Shown here one piece after another: positions 1,244 through 8,894 of a stretch of 64,000 nucleotides of DNA (position 1 is the first letter of the stretch; each line of letters begins with the position of its first letter). The notes beneath the pieces were generated by a model that was not told the DNA's origin, did no database searches, and saw only the letters and a list, made by a program, of their open reading frames with translations. The DNA lies in the NCBI RefSeq assembly GCF_022921115.1, contig NZ_CP095076.1, forward strand, positions 62,001 through 126,000, in the 5' to 3' direction. The stretch comes from Halobacillus amylolyticus (lineage in GTDB: Bacteria > Bacillota > Bacilli > Bacillales > Halobacillaceae). Both the position numbers and the translations under genes were made by a program.

Positions 1244-1633
1244 TTAGCTTTTAAAAGTAGTTAAATACTTACTTCTGATATATTCTTCATTATCATTGAT
1301 AACTTTGCCATTGTATTCTAGCCAAGCATGAGCTTCAAAGGTTTCTCGTGCTATCCCTATATGAATAGCAATATCATAGCCTAGTTTTTTAATTAACATA
1401 TAGCCTACTAGTGACTTGTGAAGACATAAGGCCTTTGACTTAAGTGGATGATGCTGACAAACTGAATCTATATCCTTACATATTTGAACAATATCACTTG
1501 TTTCTGTGACCTTTTTACGGTAATTCTTATACTTCATATTTAAATCTTCTATGATTGGCTTTATTCCATAATCCTTTAATTTTTTATCCACCGAGTACAG
1601 TAGTACAAAGATTCTGACCTTATTTTTTTTCAT
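1244..1633 (-). CDS. Lasso peptide leader peptidase (transglutaminase-like, B2 protein)
   Basis: This 129-residue protein matches the size of stand-alone lasso B2 proteases. The cysteine-protease triad is readable: Cys in KALCLHKSL (about residue 69), His in EAHAWLEYNG (about residue 102), and Asp in KVINDNEE. The known role is to cut the leader peptide from the precursor once it is delivered by the B1 protein, next to the cyclase. The start overlaps the upstream B1 gene by 14 bp, which indicates translational coupling, and the cyclase follows after 12 bp. The N-terminus is rich in Lys and Tyr and has no signal peptide, so the protein should be cytoplasmic. Confidence 0.85.
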   Translation of the reverse strand: MKKNKVRIFVLLYSVDKKLKDYGIKPIIEDLNMKYKNYRKKVTETSDIVQICKDIDSVCQHHPLKSKALCLHKSLVGYMLIKKLGYDIAIHIGIARETFEAHAWLEYNGKVINDNEEYIRSKYLTTFKS

Positions 1634-1898
1634 TTGTTTCCATCACCAATTCGGCTTTTATTAGGGAATCGAGAAATTGTTGCACGTCATTCCTTAGAAC
1701 ATCCTCTGAGACATCAAATTTATTTAAAGCGCTTACAATTATATCGTTTATATTACATACATCATTCTCATCTATTAAACTCCAAATAAATTTTGAAAAA
1801 TTATCTAAGCTATAATACATACTGTTATTGTAATCGAATATAATTGATTGCTCTTCAGAGATGTCAGTTACATATACATCTTCTTTAATAGTATACAT
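1620..1898 (-). CDS. Lasso peptide leader-binding protein (PqqD-like RRE, B1 protein)
   Basis: This is a 92-residue PqqD-family protein. It has a beta-rich N-terminus (VYVTDISEEQSIIFDYNNSMYYSLD) followed by helices (FSKFIWSLIDEND, VLRNDVQQFLDSLIKAEL), as in RiPP recognition elements. Such proteins bind the leader of the precursor and present it to the B2 protease and the cyclase. GGAGG lies 9 bp before the ATG. It is the first gene of the visible operon. The roughly 160 bp upstream contain no ORF that looks like a lasso precursor, so the precursor is probably downstream of the cyclase, outside the window. Confidence 0.85.
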   Translation of the reverse strand: MYTIKEDVYVTDISEEQSIIFDYNNSMYYSLDNFSKFIWSLIDENDVCNINDIIVSALNKFDVSEDVLRNDVQQFLDSLIKAELVMETNEKK

Positions 1899-2651: not shown

Positions 2652-2930
2652 TTATGAATCTTGAAATCCAAATGTACCTATAAGGAATGAAATAAGAAAT
2701 AATAATAAAATTAATATATTAAGTAGGATAAGAGAAATTCTAACACTACCCTTGCGCCCCAGATATGCACATACTATTCCTAGCACGCCAATAATAAAAG
2801 GGGAATAAACACTTAAGTTCATAATGTAATCAAAGAAGTTACCTCCCCATTGTGAAGGGTTATATACGAAGAGGAAAAATGTTAAAACTAAAAATATTGC
2901 GGATAAAATCGAAAAGAAATTTCTAATCAA
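2652..2930 (-). CDS. Small membrane protein of unknown function
   Basis: About 92 residues with three hydrophobic segments: FFSILSAIFLVLTFFLFVY at the N-terminus, SPFIIGVLGIVCAYLG in the middle, and ISLILLNILILLLFLISFLI near the C-terminus. A short charged loop, GRKGSVR, separates the last two. I recognise no family. The start is uncertain: a GGTGGTGGTG stretch can serve either as ribosome site for a TTG at 2930 or as a series of GTG starts up to 2942. The gene lies alone between the DUF3231 remnant and the protease/PLA2 cassette. Confidence 0.55.
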   Translation of the reverse strand: MIRNFFSILSAIFLVLTFFLFVYNPSQWGGNFFDYIMNLSVYSPFIIGVLGIVCAYLGRKGSVRISLILLNILILLLFLISFLIGTFGFQDS

Positions 2931-3156
2931 AATCACCACCACCGTGATATTTAATTATGTCATTCATCATGATGTAATATGGCCTTATAGAAGAAAGGTT
3001 TTGTAAGGCTACTGTCAACGTGTGAAGACAAAATTAGGAATGTTGTCTTTACCATTATATACAAAAGAAAATAACCTGACAAAAATATGGTTATTTTTAT
3101 ACGTTCAACATTATTCCTCTTTTCTCTGATTTTCTTCATCTGAATAAAATATTAAA

Positions 3157-3192
3157 AACCCTAAACATTCTAATAAATGAATGTTTAGGGTT
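3157..3192 (-). terminator. Strong intrinsic terminator of the protease/PLA2/Cys-rich peptide cassette
   Basis: Perfect 14-bp inverted repeat, AACCCTAAACATTC paired with GAATGTTTAGGGTT, with an 8-nt loop. On the minus strand it is followed by TTTTTAAT. It begins 17 bp after the stop of the Cys-rich peptide gene. Confidence 0.8.
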
Positions 3193-3208
3193 ACTTTTCT
3201 AATGTTGG

Positions 3209-3376
3209 TTAACAACCACAACTCTGGAATGTGTCAAGTCCGGTATTAGGGTAATATCGGAATTCAGCCGAACAACCTTCCATATAACAACAACTTGTAT
3301 GCTTATCGCAATATGTCATATAAGCTGCTTTTACTTCTTTATTTTTATCTGTATTATTTTTTTTATAATTGGCCAT
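3209..3376 (-). CDS. Cys-rich 55-residue peptide of unknown function
   Basis: The ORF starts at an ATG 6 bp after GGGAGGG, with a second ATG one codon upstream. The peptide has a Lys/Asn-rich N-terminal third (MANYKKNNTDKNKEVKAAY) and a C-terminal part with six Cys: one before DKHTS, a CC pair, one after YMEG, and a terminal CGC. There is no hydrophobic signal peptide, so the first third could act as a leader. It is the last gene before a strong terminator and follows the PLA2-like gene by 94 bp on the same strand, so it is likely co-transcribed. I recognise no family. It could be a RiPP precursor, a small zinc protein, or a partner of the PLA2-like protein. Confidence 0.6.
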   Translation of the reverse strand: MANYKKNNTDKNKEVKAAYMTYCDKHTSCCYMEGCSAEFRYYPNTGLDTFQSCGC

Positions 3377-3470
3377 CATTTTCCCTCCCCTTTTTGTATA
3401 TTAATATTTATTGTTCAAATCTAGAGATTTACTTTCCGTTTGAATTCAGTAATGCAGACAGTTAAGAGTG

Positions 3471-4228
3471 TTAGCAACCCATCTGGTTCATCTTAGCTCT
3501 AAAAGCTGTACGAATTACCGGAGGACCATACCCAGGCTCTCCATACGTACAATTAATTAAATTTTGGTCACAATCGCAACGACTTGGGTAACCTGAAAAA
3601 CTACGGTAACAGTAGTCGTGTGTTCTGCAACATGTGTCCAAGCTGTTTACTGTGCTGCCACTTCCACATCCTGCCCCACACCAATTATAATAGATAGGGA
3701 TTAACGGACCTCCAACCCAAGCTGGTTCCGAAAACACACAACAACCATTTCCCATACAAGGGACTCCATCGTACCAAGCTTCAGCAGATACCTCATTTTG
3801 AGACTCCGCCCCTCAAGAAACTCTACAATACTTGGAGCGGTTAAATTGTCAACCTCTGTAGGCTCTCCTTCGTCGAACACGATCTCGTTGTCCTCAATGA
3901 CAACAAGTCGAAGAGAGTTTCTGTTTTCAATTAGATGATATAGCCTTGCAAAGAAGGGGATTTCGTTGCTGCTAATAATCTCGGCTTTAGTATTTTTGTT
4001 AAACGTTATTACCTGCATCGTTACATCTACTTCTTTTTCAGTCCCAACACCCATAGTTAATTCTGCAGCACTCTGCTCCAAAATCGTACCGTCGAGTAGT
4101 TCAGTTAAATTTAAATGGTCTAATAACTTCTTAAACTGTTTGAAGTCTTCAGAAGGTAACCATTCTAAACCACTAACTGAGGACTTTCGAAAATTTAAAC
4201 CTCCAAGTTCCCAATTACTTTCTGCCAT
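3471..4228 (-). CDS. Phospholipase A2-like protein with unknown N-terminal domain (frameshifted in this sequence)
   Basis: The reading frame from the ATG at 4228 (AGAGGTG ribosome site) encodes about 145 residues of unknown type, rich in beta strands and acidic residues. After a GGGG run near 3810 the sequence must change frame once; one added G joins it to the downstream frame, giving about 252 residues. The C-terminal part carries the secreted phospholipase A2 signature: WCGAGCGSG (calcium-loop type), then DTCCRTHDYCY with the catalytic His-Asp pair, then CDC. Eleven Cys occur in the last 94 residues. PLA2 enzymes release the sn-2 fatty acid of phospholipids. There is no obvious signal peptide, so how it would be exported is unclear. 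A subtilisin-like protease gene lies upstream and a Cys-rich peptide gene downstream. Confidence 0.7.
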
Positions 4229-4399
4229 ATATTACTCACCTCTTTTTAGTATTGAAAGAACAATTATTGCTCTTTCTAATTAACTAAAGAGGGATTAGCA
4301 GTGAGGAAATAAACAGTTAGGATAAAGTTTATTGATTTTTTTTGAATCAACATAAGTTTTTTCATTAAAATTCATATTTTAAAGAATAAAAATGGGTAA

Positions 4400-5350
4400 T
4401 TACTTGCCAATCATTGAACTAGATAAGTCCAAAATGTTGTACTCCACTTTTTCATTAGTTTTAATAATCTTTGTATGTTCCATTAGTATTCTAAATATTT
4501 CTTCTTCTGTTATTTTCCTTGTCCAAAACCGTTCGTATTCCTCTATTAGTAATGCAATTGATCCTGCTACATGAGGAGATGCCATTGAGGTTCCTGATAA
4601 TTCTGTGTATCCTTTATCAATTGAAGTCGAAAATATACCTACACCAGGCGCATAAATAGAAACATCTTTATTAGTATTAGAGAAGGAAGCTACTTTTCTA
4701 ACCTCGTTTATAGAACCAACACTAATTACTTCTTTGTAAAAACTGGGGTACAGGTATTCTTTAGTTTTAATATTTCCATCACCTTCATTTCCAGCAGCTG
4801 CTACAATACTAATATTATTTTTCTTTGCTCGCTTTATAACCTGATGTAGTTCTGGATAAGTAGATTTTAATCCTAGGGACATACATATTACTCTGACTCT
4901 TTCATTGTTATAGCCTCGCCAATTAATTGCGTAGTTAATTGCCTCCACCAAAGCCTTTACACTACCAGTCCCTGTGTGATCAAGTGTTTTTAAAACTAAT
5001 AGGTTAGATTTTGGTGCTACTCCTACTACCCCGGTGTTATTTAATGACCCTGCTAGTATACCTGCTACGTGAGTTCCATGACCATTTAAATCTTGGTATA
5101 TGGATGCGTCCCCGTTATGATCTTCAGTAAAGTTATACCCTCCAACGATTCTTTCTTTAAGGTCTGGATGCTTAGTTTCACATCCTGAATCAAGTACAGC
5201 AATTATATTTCCATTCCCAGTGTATCCTTGTTTCCATTTCCATGGTGCCCCGATAGAAGTAATATTTGATGGTATTTCTTCTTCTATGGCAGTAATTATC
5301 CTTTTATCTAAAGGGAGTTGCTTAACGATATCATATGTCATAGTTTTCAC
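4400..5350 (-). CDS. Subtilisin-like serine protease (S8 family, intracellular type)
   Basis: The 316-residue protein has the full Asp-His-Ser triad: AVLDSGCETKHPDL, NGHGTHVAG and LSGTSMASPHVAG. The oxyanion region AAAGNEGDG is also present. It has no signal peptide and only a short N-terminal stretch (QLPLDKRI...IPSN) before the catalytic domain. Length and wording match intracellular serine proteases of Bacillus (IspA type), not secreted subtilisins. The family cleaves proteins in the cytoplasm after removal of a short N-terminal extension. It is the first gene of a minus-strand cassette, 171 bp upstream of the PLA2-like gene, so processing of the PLA2-like or Cys-rich product is a plausible role, though this is inference. 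Confidence 0.85.
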   Translation of the reverse strand: MKTMTYDIVKQLPLDKRIITAIEEEIPSNITSIGAPWKWKQGYTGNGNIIAVLDSGCETKHPDLKERIVGGYNFTEDHNGDASIYQDLNGHGTHVAGILAGSLNNTGVVGVAPKSNLLVLKTLDHTGTGSVKALVEAINYAINWRGYNNERVRVICMSLGLKSTYPELHQVIKRAKKNNISIVAAAGNEGDGNIKTKEYLYPSFYKEVISVGSINEVRKVASFSNTNKDVSIYAPGVGIFSTSIDKGYTELSGTSMASPHVAGSIALLIEEYERFWTRKITEEEIFRILMEHTKIIKTNEKVEYNILDLSSSMIGK

Positions 5351-5552
5351 TCCTTTATAAGTCTATAACTATAAAGAGGAAAAAGTGCAGCCCCTTAAAC
5401 AGGTTATTTATCTTTGACTTAAAATCTGACCTATTTAGTTAGGGGGATAAATCTCTCTGTAAAATAACTTTTATAAATCCATGGAGTAGAGTTTAAGTCG
5501 AAAACCTTTCCTTCACTTTTAAAGTAACTACTACTTAAAAGGAGGAAAAACT

Positions 5553-6896
5553 ATGGAATTATCGTTTGTTTTGTTGGATGTTGGGTTATTTGGTTTACTT
5601 ATGTCCATATTGGTAGTACTGAAAAAAATAGGACTATCATTTTCAAAGCAAGTAACGTTGGCCCTTTTGTTAGGAGTACTCTTTGGGGCGTTATTACACT
5701 GGACCCATTATGGACAAACTGAAATTTTAAACAAGAGTTTAGAGTGGATTGGAATAGTAGGGTATGGGTATGTAGATTTACTTAAGATGTTAATAATGCC
5801 TTTAATATTTGTATCCATTGTTATGGCCTTTGTGAAGAGTTCGTCAGGACGTAACTTAGGAAAAATGTCTTTTTCAGTAATTGGTATGCTAATTGGGACG
5901 ACAGCCATAGCAGCGATTATAGGGATTGGGGCTTCTTTGGTTTTTGATTTGGATACTTCAAACCTAAGATTCGGGGAAGAGGAATCCATTCGTTCAGAGA
6001 ACTTAGAAACCAGTTTAGATGATTTAAATAGTCAAACGATACCGGATAGAATCAGGGCTATTATCCCTCAGAACCCGTTCTTAGATTTTACTGGTAGTAG
6101 AAGCACGTCTACTATTGCTGTGGTAATTTTTTCTTCATTTATTGGTTTAGCTTTAATGAGGTTGGAAAAAACTTCCCTATTCCATGCAGATAAATTAATT
6201 GGAATATTCGATTCCTTGCAGCGACTAGTATTAAATTTGGTGAAAATTATTATAAGCTTTACTCCTTACGGTGTAATGGCTTTAATGACTAATATGGTAG
6301 CTTTAAGTAATTGGAACACAATCTGGGATTTAGGTAAGTTCTTAATTGCTTCATATATTGCATTAGGGGCAATGTTTATAGTTCATTTAATAATACTAGC
6401 CATAGCAGGTGTTAAACCAATGGATTATATAAAGAAAGTAAGTTCAGTTTTAACTTTTTCTTTTTCGTCTAGATCAAGCGCTGCCGCATTGCCTATGAAT
6501 GTTAAAACTCAAAAACAAGAATTTAATGTATCTGATGGTATTGCTAATTTCTCTGGATCTTTTGGTTTATCCATTGGCCAAAATGGATGTGCGGGAATTT
6601 ATCCGGCTATGTTAGCAGTCATGATTGCTCCAAGTGTAAATATAGATCCTACGAACCCAACTTTTTTAATTAACCTTGTTATAGTCGTAGCTATAAGTTC
6701 ATTTGGCGTAGTAGGGGTAGGAGGCGGAGCCACCTTAGCGGCATTAATCGTTTTATCGACATTAAATCTACCAGTAGGCTTGGCCGGATTGTTAATATCT
6801 ATTGAACCACTAATAGATATGGGGAGGACGGCTCTTAACGTTAGTGGCAGTATGACAGCTGGGATAACAACAAACAGGGTATTAAAGAAACAATAA
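5553..6896 (+). CDS. tcyP: L-cystine uptake protein, dicarboxylate/amino acid:cation symporter family
   Basis: The 447-residue multi-spanning membrane protein aligns in my reading with Bacillus subtilis TcyP along its length. Shared blocks include IPQNPFLDFTGSRSTSTIAVVIF, SFSSRSSAAALPMN, SFGLSIGQNGCAGIYPAMLAVM and IEPLIDMGRTALNVSGSMTAG. The SSRSS-type reentrant loop of the glutamate-transporter fold is present. TcyP imports cystine with sodium or protons as the driver. AAAGGAGG precedes the ATG, and a strong hairpin terminator follows, so it is a single-gene unit. Upstream I see no S-box or T-box leader. Cystine uptake matches the other thiol-related genes nearby (glutaredoxin, tRNA-Cys). Confidence 0.88.
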   Translation: MELSFVLLDVGLFGLLMSILVVLKKIGLSFSKQVTLALLLGVLFGALLHWTHYGQTEILNKSLEWIGIVGYGYVDLLKMLIMPLIFVSIVMAFVKSSSGRNLGKMSFSVIGMLIGTTAIAAIIGIGASLVFDLDTSNLRFGEEESIRSENLETSLDDLNSQTIPDRIRAIIPQNPFLDFTGSRSTSTIAVVIFSSFIGLALMRLEKTSLFHADKLIGIFDSLQRLVLNLVKIIISFTPYGVMALMTNMVALSNWNTIWDLGKFLIASYIALGAMFIVHLIILAIAGVKPMDYIKKVSSVLTFSFSSRSSAAALPMNVKTQKQEFNVSDGIANFSGSFGLSIGQNGCAGIYPAMLAVMIAPSVNIDPTNPTFLINLVIVVAISSFGVVGVGGGATLAALIVLSTLNLPVGLAGLLISIEPLIDMGRTALNVSGSMTAGITTNRVLKKQ

Positions 6897-6951: not shown

Positions 6952-7149
6952 TTATTCGGCTATTCTTTCTTTAAATTCAAAAAAACCTATGGTTTCAAGA
7001 TTTGTTATTTTTTCTGCGTTCTCTAAAATCTTTAATTTGATGGATTGTTCAAGGTCTTCTCTTTCTTCAAAATGAGTCTGGTACAATACTTTTTTAATCT
7101 TTGGCTCTAATAGGTTGATATACTCTAGTATTTCTTCCTGATTACTCAT
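6952..7149 (-). CDS. RsoA/YvrHa-like sigma co-factor (sigma region-2-type helical protein)
   Basis: I take the ATG at 7149 because GGAGGGG lies just before it; a longer frame to 7224 has no ribosome site. The 65-residue product (MSNQEEILEYINLLEPKIKKVL...) contains EEREDLEQSIKLKI, typical of the small region-2-like helical proteins that pair with split sigma factors in Bacillus (RsoA with SigO/YvrI). Region 2 melts the -10 element. The SigO-like partner lies 0.8 kb away on the other strand, and a YvrJ homologue follows. The assignment rests on sequence similarity from memory plus this neighbourhood. Confidence 0.65.
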   Translation of the reverse strand: MSNQEEILEYINLLEPKIKKVLYQTHFEEREDLEQSIKLKILENAEKITNLETIGFFEFKERIAE

Positions 7150-7217
7150 AGTACCCCTCCAGATGTTGTTGTTACTACCTAAAGTGAAAAAGGTAGTAAT
7201 TAATAAACGAATAAACA

Positions 7218-7231
7218 CGAACATATGTTCC
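7218..7231. promoter_or_regulatory. LexA (SOS) box
   Basis: CGAACATATGTTCC matches the Bacillus LexA/DinR consensus CGAACRNRYGTTYC at all 14 positions. It lies in the divergent region between the RsoA-like gene (minus) and the glutaredoxin gene (plus). Confidence 0.75.
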
Positions 7232-7330
7232 GTTATTTTTAAAATAAATGGTGTTTTATGTAATAAAATGCATGTTTATTTTTTAAAATTTCTATCACTT
7301 TACTAATTAAACAGAAGGAGGAGTGCGGAC

Positions 7331-7573
7331 ATGAAGGAAATAATAGTTTATACCAGCGCAACTTGTGGATTCTGCCAAAAACAAAAGGATTGGATGGAAA
7401 TGAACAACATTTCCTATGAGGAAAAGGATATTTTTAAAAATGAATTATACCGAGAGGAACTAATGAACCATGGGGGGAGGGGAACGCCATTTACAGTTAT
7501 AAAAACAAGCAAAGGTGTTTCTAAAGTCATGGGATTTAATCAAAAGCAGCTAGAAAAGGAGTTAATGATATAG
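7331..7573 (+). CDS. Glutaredoxin
   Basis: The 80-residue protein has the thioredoxin-fold redox motif CGFC at residues 12-15, the cis-Pro in GTPFTV (about residue 52), and a C-terminal GFNQKQLEKEL helix. This size and pattern fit glutaredoxin/NrdH-like dithiol reductases, which reduce disulfides of cytoplasmic targets at the expense of low-molecular thiols or thioredoxin reductase. AGAAGGAGG precedes the ATG. The next gene (76 aa, unknown) follows after 25 bp, so the two are probably co-transcribed. The upstream region carries a LexA box, which would make it SOS-linked. Confidence 0.9.
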   Translation: MKEIIVYTSATCGFCQKQKDWMEMNNISYEEKDIFKNELYREELMNHGGRGTPFTVIKTSKGVSKVMGFNQKQLEKELMI

Positions 7574-7598: not shown

Positions 7599-7829
7599 AT
7601 GCAACAACAGAATGATTTTTATTATGAAAGTCTATTTGAACGGTATACAGAATTGAGAAAGGATTTACATCGCTGTACTAAAAAATTAGATGTAGCTCAT
7701 AGTGAGGATATAGCTTTATATCAAGAGGTTTGTATGTTATTAGCCCAGCAAATAAACAACCTACGAAGCACTTGTTATGAAGTGTATTCCAAAGAGGATT
7801 GTCAAGAAAATTTAGATAAAGTGAAATAA
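7599..7829 (+). CDS. Hypothetical 76-residue helical protein
   Basis: Highly charged and predicted helical (YTELRKDLHRCTKKLDVAHSEDIALYQEVCMLLAQQINNLRS), with four Cys and no membrane segment. A good ribosome site (AGGAGGG) lies 7 bp before the ATG. It follows the glutaredoxin gene closely. I recognise no family. A region-4-like or anti-sigma role beside the SigO-like gene is possible but unsupported. Confidence 0.6.
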   Translation: MQQQNDFYYESLFERYTELRKDLHRCTKKLDVAHSEDIALYQEVCMLLAQQINNLRSTCYEVYSKEDCQENLDKVK

Positions 7830-7973: not shown

Positions 7974-8555
7974 ATGAGAGAAGAAACAATTAAATTCAAA
8001 GAGTTTAAAAGAGATAATGAGAAACTTATGGCTCAACCCATTGTGAGAAGATTTTTGGATGATGAGGAGAACTTGAAATTATTAAATGGATACTTGGAAG
8101 GAGATGAAAAGGCTGCTGCTTTATTAGATGAGAGATTTAAGCAACATCATAATAAGGCCAAAATAATAAATTACTTATCCAGCTTAATTTATTATTTCTC
8201 CATTGACTATGATAAGAGAGCTAAATTAAAGTCCTATAGATTTCCCCTGATATTGAATAAACGGCTAAATGTAAATGAGAAGGATAATTCCGAAGATCTC
8301 TTGGGTACTTTTGGTAGTGAAACGGTCCCATATGAAGAAATAGTGGATAATAAATACTTAGAAAATATTTTTACAAACAAATCACTTGCGAAGGCTATTA
8401 CTAAGCTTACTGACAAACAAAAGGAAATTGTCTCCTTGTTTTATATATATCAGTATTCCAATAAGGAAATTGCTGAATATCTAAAAGAAAGTGAGCAGAA
8501 TATCTCAAACCTAAAGAGGCGTGCATTAAAAACGCTATATAAATTTTCCTCGTAA
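7974..8555 (+). CDS. SigO/YvrI-like RNA polymerase sigma factor
   Basis: The 193-residue protein resembles Bacillus SigO (YvrI). The middle has INYLSSLIYYFSIDYDKR, typical of that group, and the C-terminus is a region-4 helix-turn-helix (ITKLTDKQKEIVSLFYIYQYSNKEIAEYLKESEQNISNLKRRALKTLYKF) that would read the -35 element. A complete region 2 is not evident, in line with a split sigma that needs RsoA for -10 recognition. Ribosome site AAAGGTGGGGG. The RsoA-like and YvrJ-like genes are close by, as in B. subtilis. A near-consensus LexA box precedes it. Confidence 0.75.
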   Translation: MREETIKFKEFKRDNEKLMAQPIVRRFLDDEENLKLLNGYLEGDEKAAALLDERFKQHHNKAKIINYLSSLIYYFSIDYDKRAKLKSYRFPLILNKRLNVNEKDNSEDLLGTFGSETVPYEEIVDNKYLENIFTNKSLAKAITKLTDKQKEIVSLFYIYQYSNKEIAEYLKESEQNISNLKRRALKTLYKFSS

Positions 8556-8613
8556 TGTTAATTTTTTTTAATATACTCCTCTCTTAGATATAAGAGAGGA
8601 AAATATAACTGAT

Positions 8614-8684
8614 GGTAGTATAGCCAAGTGGTAAGGCAAAGGTCTGCAAAACCTTCATCCTCGGTTCGAATCCGAGTACTACCT
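8614..8684 (+). tRNA. tRNA-Cys (anticodon GCA)
   Basis: A 71-nt cloverleaf can be folded. The acceptor stem is GGTAGTA/TACTACC with discriminator T, the D-arm is AGCCAAGTGGTAAGGC, the anticodon stem is AAGGT-CTGCAAA-ACCTT with anticodon GCA, and the T-arm is TCGGTTCGAATCCGA. CCA is not encoded. A tRNA-Cys in plasmid-like DNA is unusual; it could supplement translation of the Cys-rich proteins to its left or be a remnant of an integration site. Confidence 0.92.
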
Positions 8685-8744
8685 CTATAATCTACTAATG
8701 AAGACATGAAATCCGAATATATATTTTGAAAGTGGGTGATTGGT

Positions 8745-8894
8745 TTGGAACCGAATTATTGGGTTGCTTTAATAGGAAACTTAGGGTTCCCTATCGTAGT
8801 AACATTTTATCTGTTGATGCGATTGGAAAGGAATTTTAATCAGCTAGAACAGGTAGTTGAAGAACTAATATCGGAAATCCGAAAAAATAAATAA
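8745..8894 (+). CDS. yvrJ: YvrJ family small membrane protein
   Basis: This 49-residue ORF begins with EPNYWVALIGNLGFPIVVTFYLL followed by MRLERNFNQLEQVVEELI, which matches the YvrJ family (one membrane segment with the GFPIVVT motif, then a short coiled-coil tail). I choose the TTG at 8745 because AAAGTGGGTG is correctly spaced upstream; a GTG at 8736 is also possible. In B. subtilis yvrJ sits beside the SigO/RsoA genes, which fits this neighbourhood. Its function is not known. Confidence 0.8.
   Translation: MEPNYWVALIGNLGFPIVVTFYLLMRLERNFNQLEQVVEELISEIRKNK

What the first reader, a model, noticed from the sequence alone, without database searches (positions are those of the whole stretch)
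3157..5350. Three-gene cassette: subtilisin-like protease, PLA2-like protein and a Cys-rich peptide
All three genes are on the minus strand, and the last is followed by a strong terminator. The PLA2-like protein keeps the His-Asp catalytic motif (CCRTHDYCY), while the protease is of the intracellular type and neither protein has a clear signal peptide. A protease, a lipid-cutting enzyme and a six-Cys peptide together suggest a toxin, a bacteriocin or an envelope-active system that I do not know as a described unit.
Basis: partly seen in the sequence, partly recalled or inferred. Interest (0 to 1): 0.75.

Follow-up and report, generated by a model that had tools for sequence, protein, structure and literature searches.

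The report
Toxin-like cassette with its own tRNA
The protease, the phospholipase-like protein and the cysteine-rich peptide belong to a larger, recurrent and apparently undescribed bacterial gene cassette that also carries its own transcription factor, a glutaredoxin and a private cysteine tRNA, as if built to make a burst of cysteine-rich, probably antibacterial, proteins.

Summary
The three genes are real, but they are one end of a larger module. Within 6 kb lie a SigO-like sigma factor, its RsoA-like partner, a holin-like YvrJ protein, a glutaredoxin and the window's only tRNA gene, tRNA-Cys(GCA). The module recurs on ten named plasmids of six genera (tRNA-Cys on nine) and in 14 further loci of Bacilli. 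Of 25 loci with sigma plus glutaredoxin, 19 carry tRNA-Cys and none another tRNA. In a sigma-chosen sample, 5 of 7 loci with glutaredoxin and 0 of 56 without it carry tRNA-Cys. A promoter matrix built from sites of two relatives places its four best sites in the 64-kb window before PLA2, protease, glutaredoxin and RsoA. The six-Cys peptide is a family of ten known here. Peptides and PLA2-like precursors share a motif (EVxxQA) just before their cysteine-rich part, a candidate cleavage site for the protease. Best reading: a sigma-controlled, often plasmid-borne cassette making leaderless, disulphide-rich toxin-like proteins, with private cysteine supply, protease maturation and perhaps holin-like release. 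Antagonism, cleavage and release are inferred. In the window the PLA2 gene is split between two frames; the nearest relatives are intact.

The parts
4400..5350 (-). S8 protease of intracellular-subtilisin type; proposed maturation protease
   Evidence: PF00082 E 3.3e-57; ISP structures E 2.6e-85; homologues in 19 of 25 sigma+glutaredoxin loci
5372..5401 (-). predicted cassette promoter of the S8 gene
   Evidence: second-best site of the 64-kb window with a matrix of L008+L202 sites
3701..4228 (-). N-domain of the PLA2-like protein (own frame; its match to the relative ends at residue 142)
   Evidence: 46% identity over 140 aa to the intact Siminovitchia terrae protein
3471..3755 (-). PLA2-like catalytic domain, in another frame than the N-domain
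   Evidence: PF08398 E 1.9e-5; 57% identity to the intact relative; His-Asp, second Asp and Cys pattern invariant in 11 relatives
4285..4315 (-). predicted cassette promoter of the PLA2-like gene
   Evidence: best site of the window
3209..3379 (-). six-Cys peptide, member of a family with a conserved V-x-x-Q leader motif (the window copy has A for Q)
   Evidence: 10 aligned members
3157..3192 (-). terminator-like hairpin after the peptide gene
2652..2942 (-). 96-aa hydrophobic membrane protein, candidate immunity protein; probable start a little inside
   Evidence: 41% identity to the gene directly after PLA2 in S. terrae; third copy beside the halocin-like gene of L146
6952..7224 (-). RsoA-like sigma subunit; likely start near 7149 (inferred from homology)
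   Evidence: 48% over 46 aa to the S. terrae homologue; the profile was seeded with it
7179..7209 (-). predicted cassette promoter of the RsoA-like gene
   Evidence: tied third/fourth site of the window
7273..7302 (+). predicted cassette promoter of glutaredoxin
   Evidence: tied third/fourth site of the window
7331..7573 (+). glutaredoxin
   Evidence: PF00462 E 3.8e-11
7599..7829 (+). small Cys-containing protein (x76), recurrent, role unknown
   Evidence: profile hits in 12 of 25 cassette loci, seeds included, some weak
7974..8555 (+). SigO-like sigma factor (region 4 detected)
   Evidence: PF08281 E 5.6e-11; 35% identity to S. terrae homologue
8556..8586 (+). weak promoter-like match before tRNA-Cys
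   Evidence: 12 of 16 positions; not among the best sites of the window; overlaps an inverted repeat
8614..8685 (+). tRNA-Cys(GCA), the only tRNA gene of the window
   Evidence: Rfam tRNA 69.7 bits
8736..8894 (+). YvrJ family, holin-like small membrane protein
   Evidence: PF12841 E 1.3e-14
5553..6896 (+). dicarboxylate/L-cystine symporter family; possible extra cystine supply, not a conserved cassette part
   Evidence: PF00375 E 2.9e-99; plasmid hits annotated L-cystine transporter; beside no other cassette

Best explanation
It is a mobile production cassette for leaderless, cysteine-rich, toxin-like proteins. A SigO/RsoA-type two-subunit sigma factor recognises a shared promoter and switches on, together, the cargo (PLA2-like precursor and six-Cys peptide), an intracellular-subtilisin-type protease, a glutaredoxin and, in at least two clades, a private tRNA-Cys. 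tRNA-Cys and glutaredoxin keep cysteine incorporation and thiol state in step with a burst of cargo whose mature parts are 11-12% Cys. Cargo carries a leader or N-domain ending in a motif like EVxxQA; the protease cuts there and frees the cysteine-rich domain, which folds by disulphides outside. Exit is by the holin-like YvrJ (with an amidase in some cassettes), as proposed for Bcn5-type bacteriocins. The PLA2 domain then attacks membranes of competing bacteria, and the small membrane protein beside it may give immunity. Shown by computation: the linkage, the tRNA specificity, the shared promoter motifs, the shared motif in cargo, the conserved PLA2 catalytic residues. Inferred: that the sigma acts on these promoters, cleavage at the motif, release, antibacterial action, immunity, and that the tRNA serves the cargo.
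Against: No antibacterial activity, cleavage or release is known. 6 of 25 sigma+glutaredoxin loci show no tRNA-Cys and 6 no S8 in the stretch read; L010 keeps the motif without S8 nearby. 7 of 18 PLA2-chosen loci lack tRNA-Cys; L074, L079 and L081 have tRNA-Cys and PLA2 but no sigma in the stretch read, and L202 has tRNA-Cys, YvrJ and S8 but no sigma, glutaredoxin or PLA2 in 38 kb. L208 is decayed (sigma in pieces, PLA2 ORF of 68 aa). The window's own Cys peptide lacks the Q and its motif score is not significant (p 0.11); 11 of 33 PLA2 linkers were dropped for want of a clear motif; the halocin-like cargo of L146 lacks it (p 0.61). Among small ORFs the motif is hardly enriched. The promoter consensus was first seen by eye in window, L008 and L202 together, so the left-out test is not fully blind; in that clade an AT-rich dyad scored slightly higher (43.5 against 42.5, null maximum 41.5). 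The window's tRNA-Cys has only a weak promoter match; the strict window-type motif does not transfer to other clades (1 of 3 hits near starts); single-locus motif searches in 8 of 10 loci did not exceed their shuffles. In the window the PLA2 gene is frame-disrupted, so this copy may be inactive. Most of the 25 loci were picked through PLA2, glutaredoxin or tRNA-Cys.
Confidence: 0.57

Rival explanations
1. The module serves the producer itself rather than warfare: a stress, developmental or sporulation regulon whose Cys-rich proteins build or remodel the cell or spore surface.
For: SigO/RsoA without tRNA-Cys is widespread in Bacilli (56 of 59 sigma-chosen loci lack glutaredoxin) and in B. subtilis controls oxdC-yvrL and yvrJ (PMC8103513, passages); short PLA2-like proteins are common on chromosomes; a small acid-soluble spore protein gene lies in the stretch read in 2 of 10 plasmids (L010, L211).
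Against: The module is often plasmid-borne, with variable N-domains, several cargo paralogues in some loci (L072, L075, L076, L084) and sometimes a small membrane protein beside it, as in antagonism clusters; no spore gene recurs in the other eight plasmid stretches as annotated.
Confidence: 0.22
2. The tRNA-Cys is not for cargo translation: it is a protected or decoy tRNA, for example against a tRNA-cleaving toxin or phage, or a leftover integration site of a mobile element.
For: Cassette tRNAs form their own lineages; mobile elements often use tRNA genes (general knowledge).
Against: Only Cys occurs (0 other tRNAs in 25 loci), recognised by ARAGORN as tRNA-Cys(GCA); it sits between or just before cargo genes (L010, L007, L081) and has a cassette promoter site in L006, L007, L073, L008, L202; I saw no nuclease recurring in the annotated stretches; integration would leave various tRNAs.
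Confidence: 0.12
3. An anti-phage abortive system: the sigma switches on protease and phospholipase that kill the infected cell.
For: The S8 protease has partial PADLOC matches to subtilase and IetS models.
Against: No PADLOC match at E 0.001 for the other 8 of 9 proteins tested; a disulphide-rich PLA2 would likely be inactive in the reducing cytoplasm; tblastn of the S. terrae PLA2-like protein found nothing in 50,697 phage records.
Confidence: 0.06

Closest known systems
Bcn5 bacteriocin module of Clostridium perfringens pIP404 (UviA sigma, UviB BhlA-family holin, amidase, leaderless bacteriocin)
   Same: Own sigma factor, small holin-like protein, an amidase gene near it in some (L009, L207, L208), cargo without Sec signal, plasmid-borne (PMC9527704, passages).
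   Different: Two-subunit SigO/RsoA type, YvrJ instead of BhlA family, PLA2-like and six-Cys cargo, S8 protease, glutaredoxin and tRNA-Cys; no Bcn5-like peptidase domain found in the cargo.
SigO-RsoA-YvrJ of Bacillus subtilis
   Same: Split sigma (regions 4 and 2 on separate proteins) with yvrJ in the regulon (PMC8103513, passages).
   Different: [quoted passage not shown] no tRNA, glutaredoxin, S8 or PLA2 is mentioned there.
Secreted phospholipase A2 superfamily (PF00068, PF08398)
   Same: Ca-loop-like CG segment, His-Asp pair, second Asp, Cys pattern, three-helix fold.
   Different: Preceded by a variable N-domain and a protease-like linker; no signal peptide.
Halocin C8-type precursors (NF040679)
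   Same: N-domain followed by a Cys-rich C-terminal peptide; L146 carries such a 226-aa protein in place of PLA2 (weak, E 0.13).
   Different: Here PLA2-like cargo and sigma/tRNA module; weak similarity only.
Subtilase maturation proteases of lantibiotics such as ElxP or LicP (recalled, no call)
   Same: S8 protease coded beside a leader-bearing, Cys-containing precursor.
   Different: Closest solved relatives here are intracellular subtilisins; no modification enzyme seen in the cassette.

Membership tests
Bcn5/UviAB bacteriocin module | sigma factor gene in the cluster | tested here: met
   (but of SigO type)
Bcn5/UviAB bacteriocin module | BhlA/UviB-family holin | tested here: not met
   the small membrane protein matches YvrJ PF12841; no BhlA match at E 0.1
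Bcn5/UviAB bacteriocin module | Bcn5-family bacteriocin (MpaA-like peptidase domain) | tested here: not met
   Pfam finds only PLA2 families above chance in the cargo
SigO-RsoA two-subunit sigma | region-4 protein plus separate small partner encoded together | tested here: met
   sigma and RsoA-like genes together in 25 of 25 sigma+glutaredoxin loci
SigO-RsoA two-subunit sigma | both subunits needed for transcription | not testable with these tools
   needs bench work
Secreted PLA2 superfamily | His-Asp catalytic pair and Cys scaffold | tested here: met
   invariant H215, D216, D232 and Cys in 11 sequences; PF08398 above cut-off for the window domain
Secreted PLA2 superfamily | phospholipase activity | not testable with these tools
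   assay needed
Intracellular subtilisin (ISP) | closest relatives ISP, no signal peptide, catalytic Asp/His/Ser motifs | tested here: met
   motifs read (DSG, GHGTHVAG, GTSMASPH)
Halocin C8-like | match to NF040679 above cut-off | tested here: not met
   L146 cargo 11.8 bits against 200; no match for the window's proteins
Known anti-phage defence | system match in PADLOC | tested here: not met
   only subtilase/IetS models for the protease

The most novel reading that the evidence does not exclude
A new class of mobile antagonism cassette that brings its own translational supply: a private, sigma-controlled tRNA-Cys plus glutaredoxin dedicated to the burst synthesis of leaderless disulphide-rich toxins, with unrelated cargo families (PLA2-like, six-Cys peptide, a protein of about 113 aa, perhaps a halocin-like one) matured by one protease at a common EVxxQA motif. 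It would be a case of a mobile element matching tRNA supply to the amino-acid make-up of one toxin payload.
Probability: 0.45. Interest if true: 0.92.

Novelty: new variant of a known kind. Interest (0 to 1): 0.82.

Why it matters
It suggests that mobile elements can carry a private tRNA for the one rare amino acid their payload needs, under the payload's own sigma factor. It gives a testable two-subunit sigma regulon outside oxdC, a common processing motif linking unrelated cargo, and a family of bacterial pro-PLA2 proteins that may be antibacterial. Searching for lone tRNA-Cys beside glutaredoxin and RsoA would find further cargo.

Full report
What is there. The window is bases 62001-126000 of a 145,254-base contig (C2) beside a 4,154,097-base one. 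On the minus strand lie an S8 protease (4400-5350), an N-domain ORF (3701-4228), a PLA2-domain ORF (3471-3755) and a 56-aa six-Cys peptide (3209-3379), then a terminator-like hairpin (3157-3192). The protease is closest to intracellular subtilisins. The N-domain and PLA2 domain are one protein in the nearest relatives (S. terrae L004, 263 aa; P0002-P0005) but lie in two overlapping frames here; 34 other ORFs of 190 aa or more are single, and one other locus (L081) shows a similar split.

The larger module. Next to the three genes are an RsoA-like gene (6952-7224), glutaredoxin (7331-7573), a small protein (7599-7829), a SigO-like sigma factor (7974-8555), tRNA-Cys (8614-8685), the only tRNA gene of the window, and YvrJ (8736-8894). 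SigO-RsoA is a known split sigma whose regulon includes yvrJ (PMC8103513, passages).

Recurrence. tblastn of the PLA2 domain hit 21 of 72,556 plasmid records at E 0.01. Ten annotated plasmid regions of Priestia, Geobacillus, Halobacillus, Bacillus, Salimicrobium and Parageobacillus carry sigma, RsoA, YvrJ, glutaredoxin and PLA2; seven carry S8 and nine tRNA-Cys (L006-L010, L203, L207-L209; not L211). One of them, L208, is decayed (sigma in pieces, PLA2 ORF of 68 aa). Counter-cases: four other plasmid regions picked for tRNA-Cys are different things, namely ordinary tRNA arrays (L204, L205, L210) and a lone tRNA-Cys beside a longer S8 protease on P. megaterium pBM700 (L206). One search found 116 plasmid records with a tRNA-Cys-like match; only these and the cassette ones were looked at. 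Searching 397 genomes of the order and 398 of the class (partly the same genomes) with the PLA2 alignment gave 148 and 64 genomes with any match, mostly short chromosomal forms of about 90-130 aa; the long forms with N-domain were followed up.

Statistics. In 84 loci with a sigma of this type, glutaredoxin and tRNA-Cys are both/first only/second only/neither in 19/6/2/57 (p 9e-12), PLA2 and tRNA-Cys in 20/5/1/58. Most of these were found through PLA2, glutaredoxin or tRNA-Cys and so are biased. Fairer is the sample chosen by the sigma factor alone (stretches for all hits of 106 bits or more except those already held, plus one of 91 bits; four hits of 92-101 bits not fetched): of 59 stretches, glutaredoxin in 3, tRNA-Cys in 2 of those 3 and in 0 of the other 56; three of the 56 have a tRNA-Ser. 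The third, L192, is a contig of genome G099, whose contig C39 has tRNA-Cys and PLA2 (L079). Putting back the four loci already held (window, L073, L083, L084) gives 5 of 7 against 0 of 56 (p 3e-6). So the sigma pair is common and the tRNA-Cys goes with the glutaredoxin/PLA2 version of it. Misses among 25: no tRNA-Cys in L075, L082, L083, L086, L192, L211. Of 18 PLA2-chosen loci, 11 have tRNA-Cys, 12 sigma, 9 glutaredoxin, and none another tRNA.

The tRNA. All copies read GCA. 28 cassette tRNAs are less alike (mean identity 0.83) than 20 from ordinary arrays (0.93), and the two sets differ (0.80); the window's copy is 98.6% identical to that of L202 (a 90-kb contig of a congener) and at most 85.9% to an array copy. 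Congeners keep an array tRNA-Cys. Some cassettes have two (L071, L084, L203). Cys content in the window: PLA2 piece 11 of 94, peptide 6 of 56, against 0-2 Cys in the S8, sigma, YvrJ, glutaredoxin and transporter proteins.

Shared control. By eye the upstream regions of window, L008 and L202 share TGTTTAW, a 15-16-base spacer and CTCTTTA. Tested by leaving out each locus in turn: with sites from L008 and L202 only, the four best sites of the whole window on both strands are 56 bp before the PLA2 ORF, 21 before S8, 28 before glutaredoxin and 30 before the likely RsoA start. The consensus used to pick training sites came from looking at all three loci, so the test is not fully blind. The left-out L008 gives an operon for a secreted 135-aa protein and ABC transporter, glutaredoxin, tRNA-Cys, PLA2 and RsoA. 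Another clade shows GGTTGTAA-16-TTCTTTAT before tRNA-Cys, PLA2, glutaredoxin and S8, with some unlabelled sites ranking between. The strict window pattern does not transfer to other clades, and eight of ten single-locus tests were not above their shuffles. The peptide has no site of its own and lies 91 bp after the PLA2 ORF, so it is probably co-transcribed.

Release and immunity. YvrJ is short with one hydrophobic stretch, like BhlA holins (my reading of the sequence; several YvrJ copies fall below the hydrophobicity mark). Bcn5 bacteriocins with sigma, holin and amidase but no Sec signal are the closest working analogue (PMC9527704, passages). Amidase genes stand near YvrJ in L009 and L207 and near the glutaredoxin in L208. 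A 92-110-aa membrane protein lies beside the cargo in three loci only.

Verdict. Repeated linkage, a single tRNA species and shared promoters make the module real in my judgement; its being an antagonism cassette with private cysteine supply is the best reading, not a proven one.

Noticed in passing
window 1244-1898 and L212 13699-16095: PqqD-like and transglutaminase-like genes (lasso-peptide B1/B2 type) with, upstream on the plasmid, an ABC transporter and a piece resembling (by my reading) the asparagine-synthase-like lasso cyclase: a likely lasso-peptide cluster next to the cassette.
   Followed up: partly
L006 5895-10048, L008 6952-10331, L209 11587-15573, L211 6680-10629: Recurrent operon in the same plasmids: secreted 123-135-aa protein, about 670-aa membrane protein, ABC ATPase and, in most, a membrane protein of about 200 aa; cassette promoter site in front in L006 and L008. 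Looks like a second bacteriocin-type unit under the same sigma.
   Followed up: partly
L146 12127-12807: Cassette with sigma, RsoA, glutaredoxin, tRNA-Cys, YvrJ and S8 but a 226-aa protein with a halocin-C8-like Cys-rich end instead of PLA2 (NF040679 E 0.13).
   Followed up: partly
L073 15207-15563, L074 10271-10603, L006 2195-2536: Family of about 113-aa leaderless proteins with a VEAQAS start, promoter site in front in two of three; unknown third cargo type.
   Followed up: partly
L081 4408-5156: ORFs of 185 and 95 aa overlap in different frames, the second with the PLA2 domain: the same arrangement as in the window, in another genus. Decay or frameshifting not tested.
   Followed up: no
L206 8582-10102 (pBM700): Lone tRNA-Cys directly before a different, longer S8 protease on P. 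megaterium pBM700; about eleven other Priestia plasmid records show the same kind of hit. No sigma or glutaredoxin seen nearby.
   Followed up: no
L201 (own chromosome): The host chromosome has its own SigO/RsoA/YvrJ set without tRNA-Cys or glutaredoxin nearby.
   Followed up: no
own chromosome (C1): The Tyr-Trp-His-Gln-Gly-Cys tRNA array present in 10 of 10 congeners was not seen in this assembly; part of the chromosome reads N, so nothing follows about tRNA-Cys number.
   Followed up: partly
loci L030-L043, L046-L067: Short PLA2-like proteins of about 90-130 aa are common on chromosomes of Bacilli, in one genus often next to tRNA arrays; role unknown.
   Followed up: no
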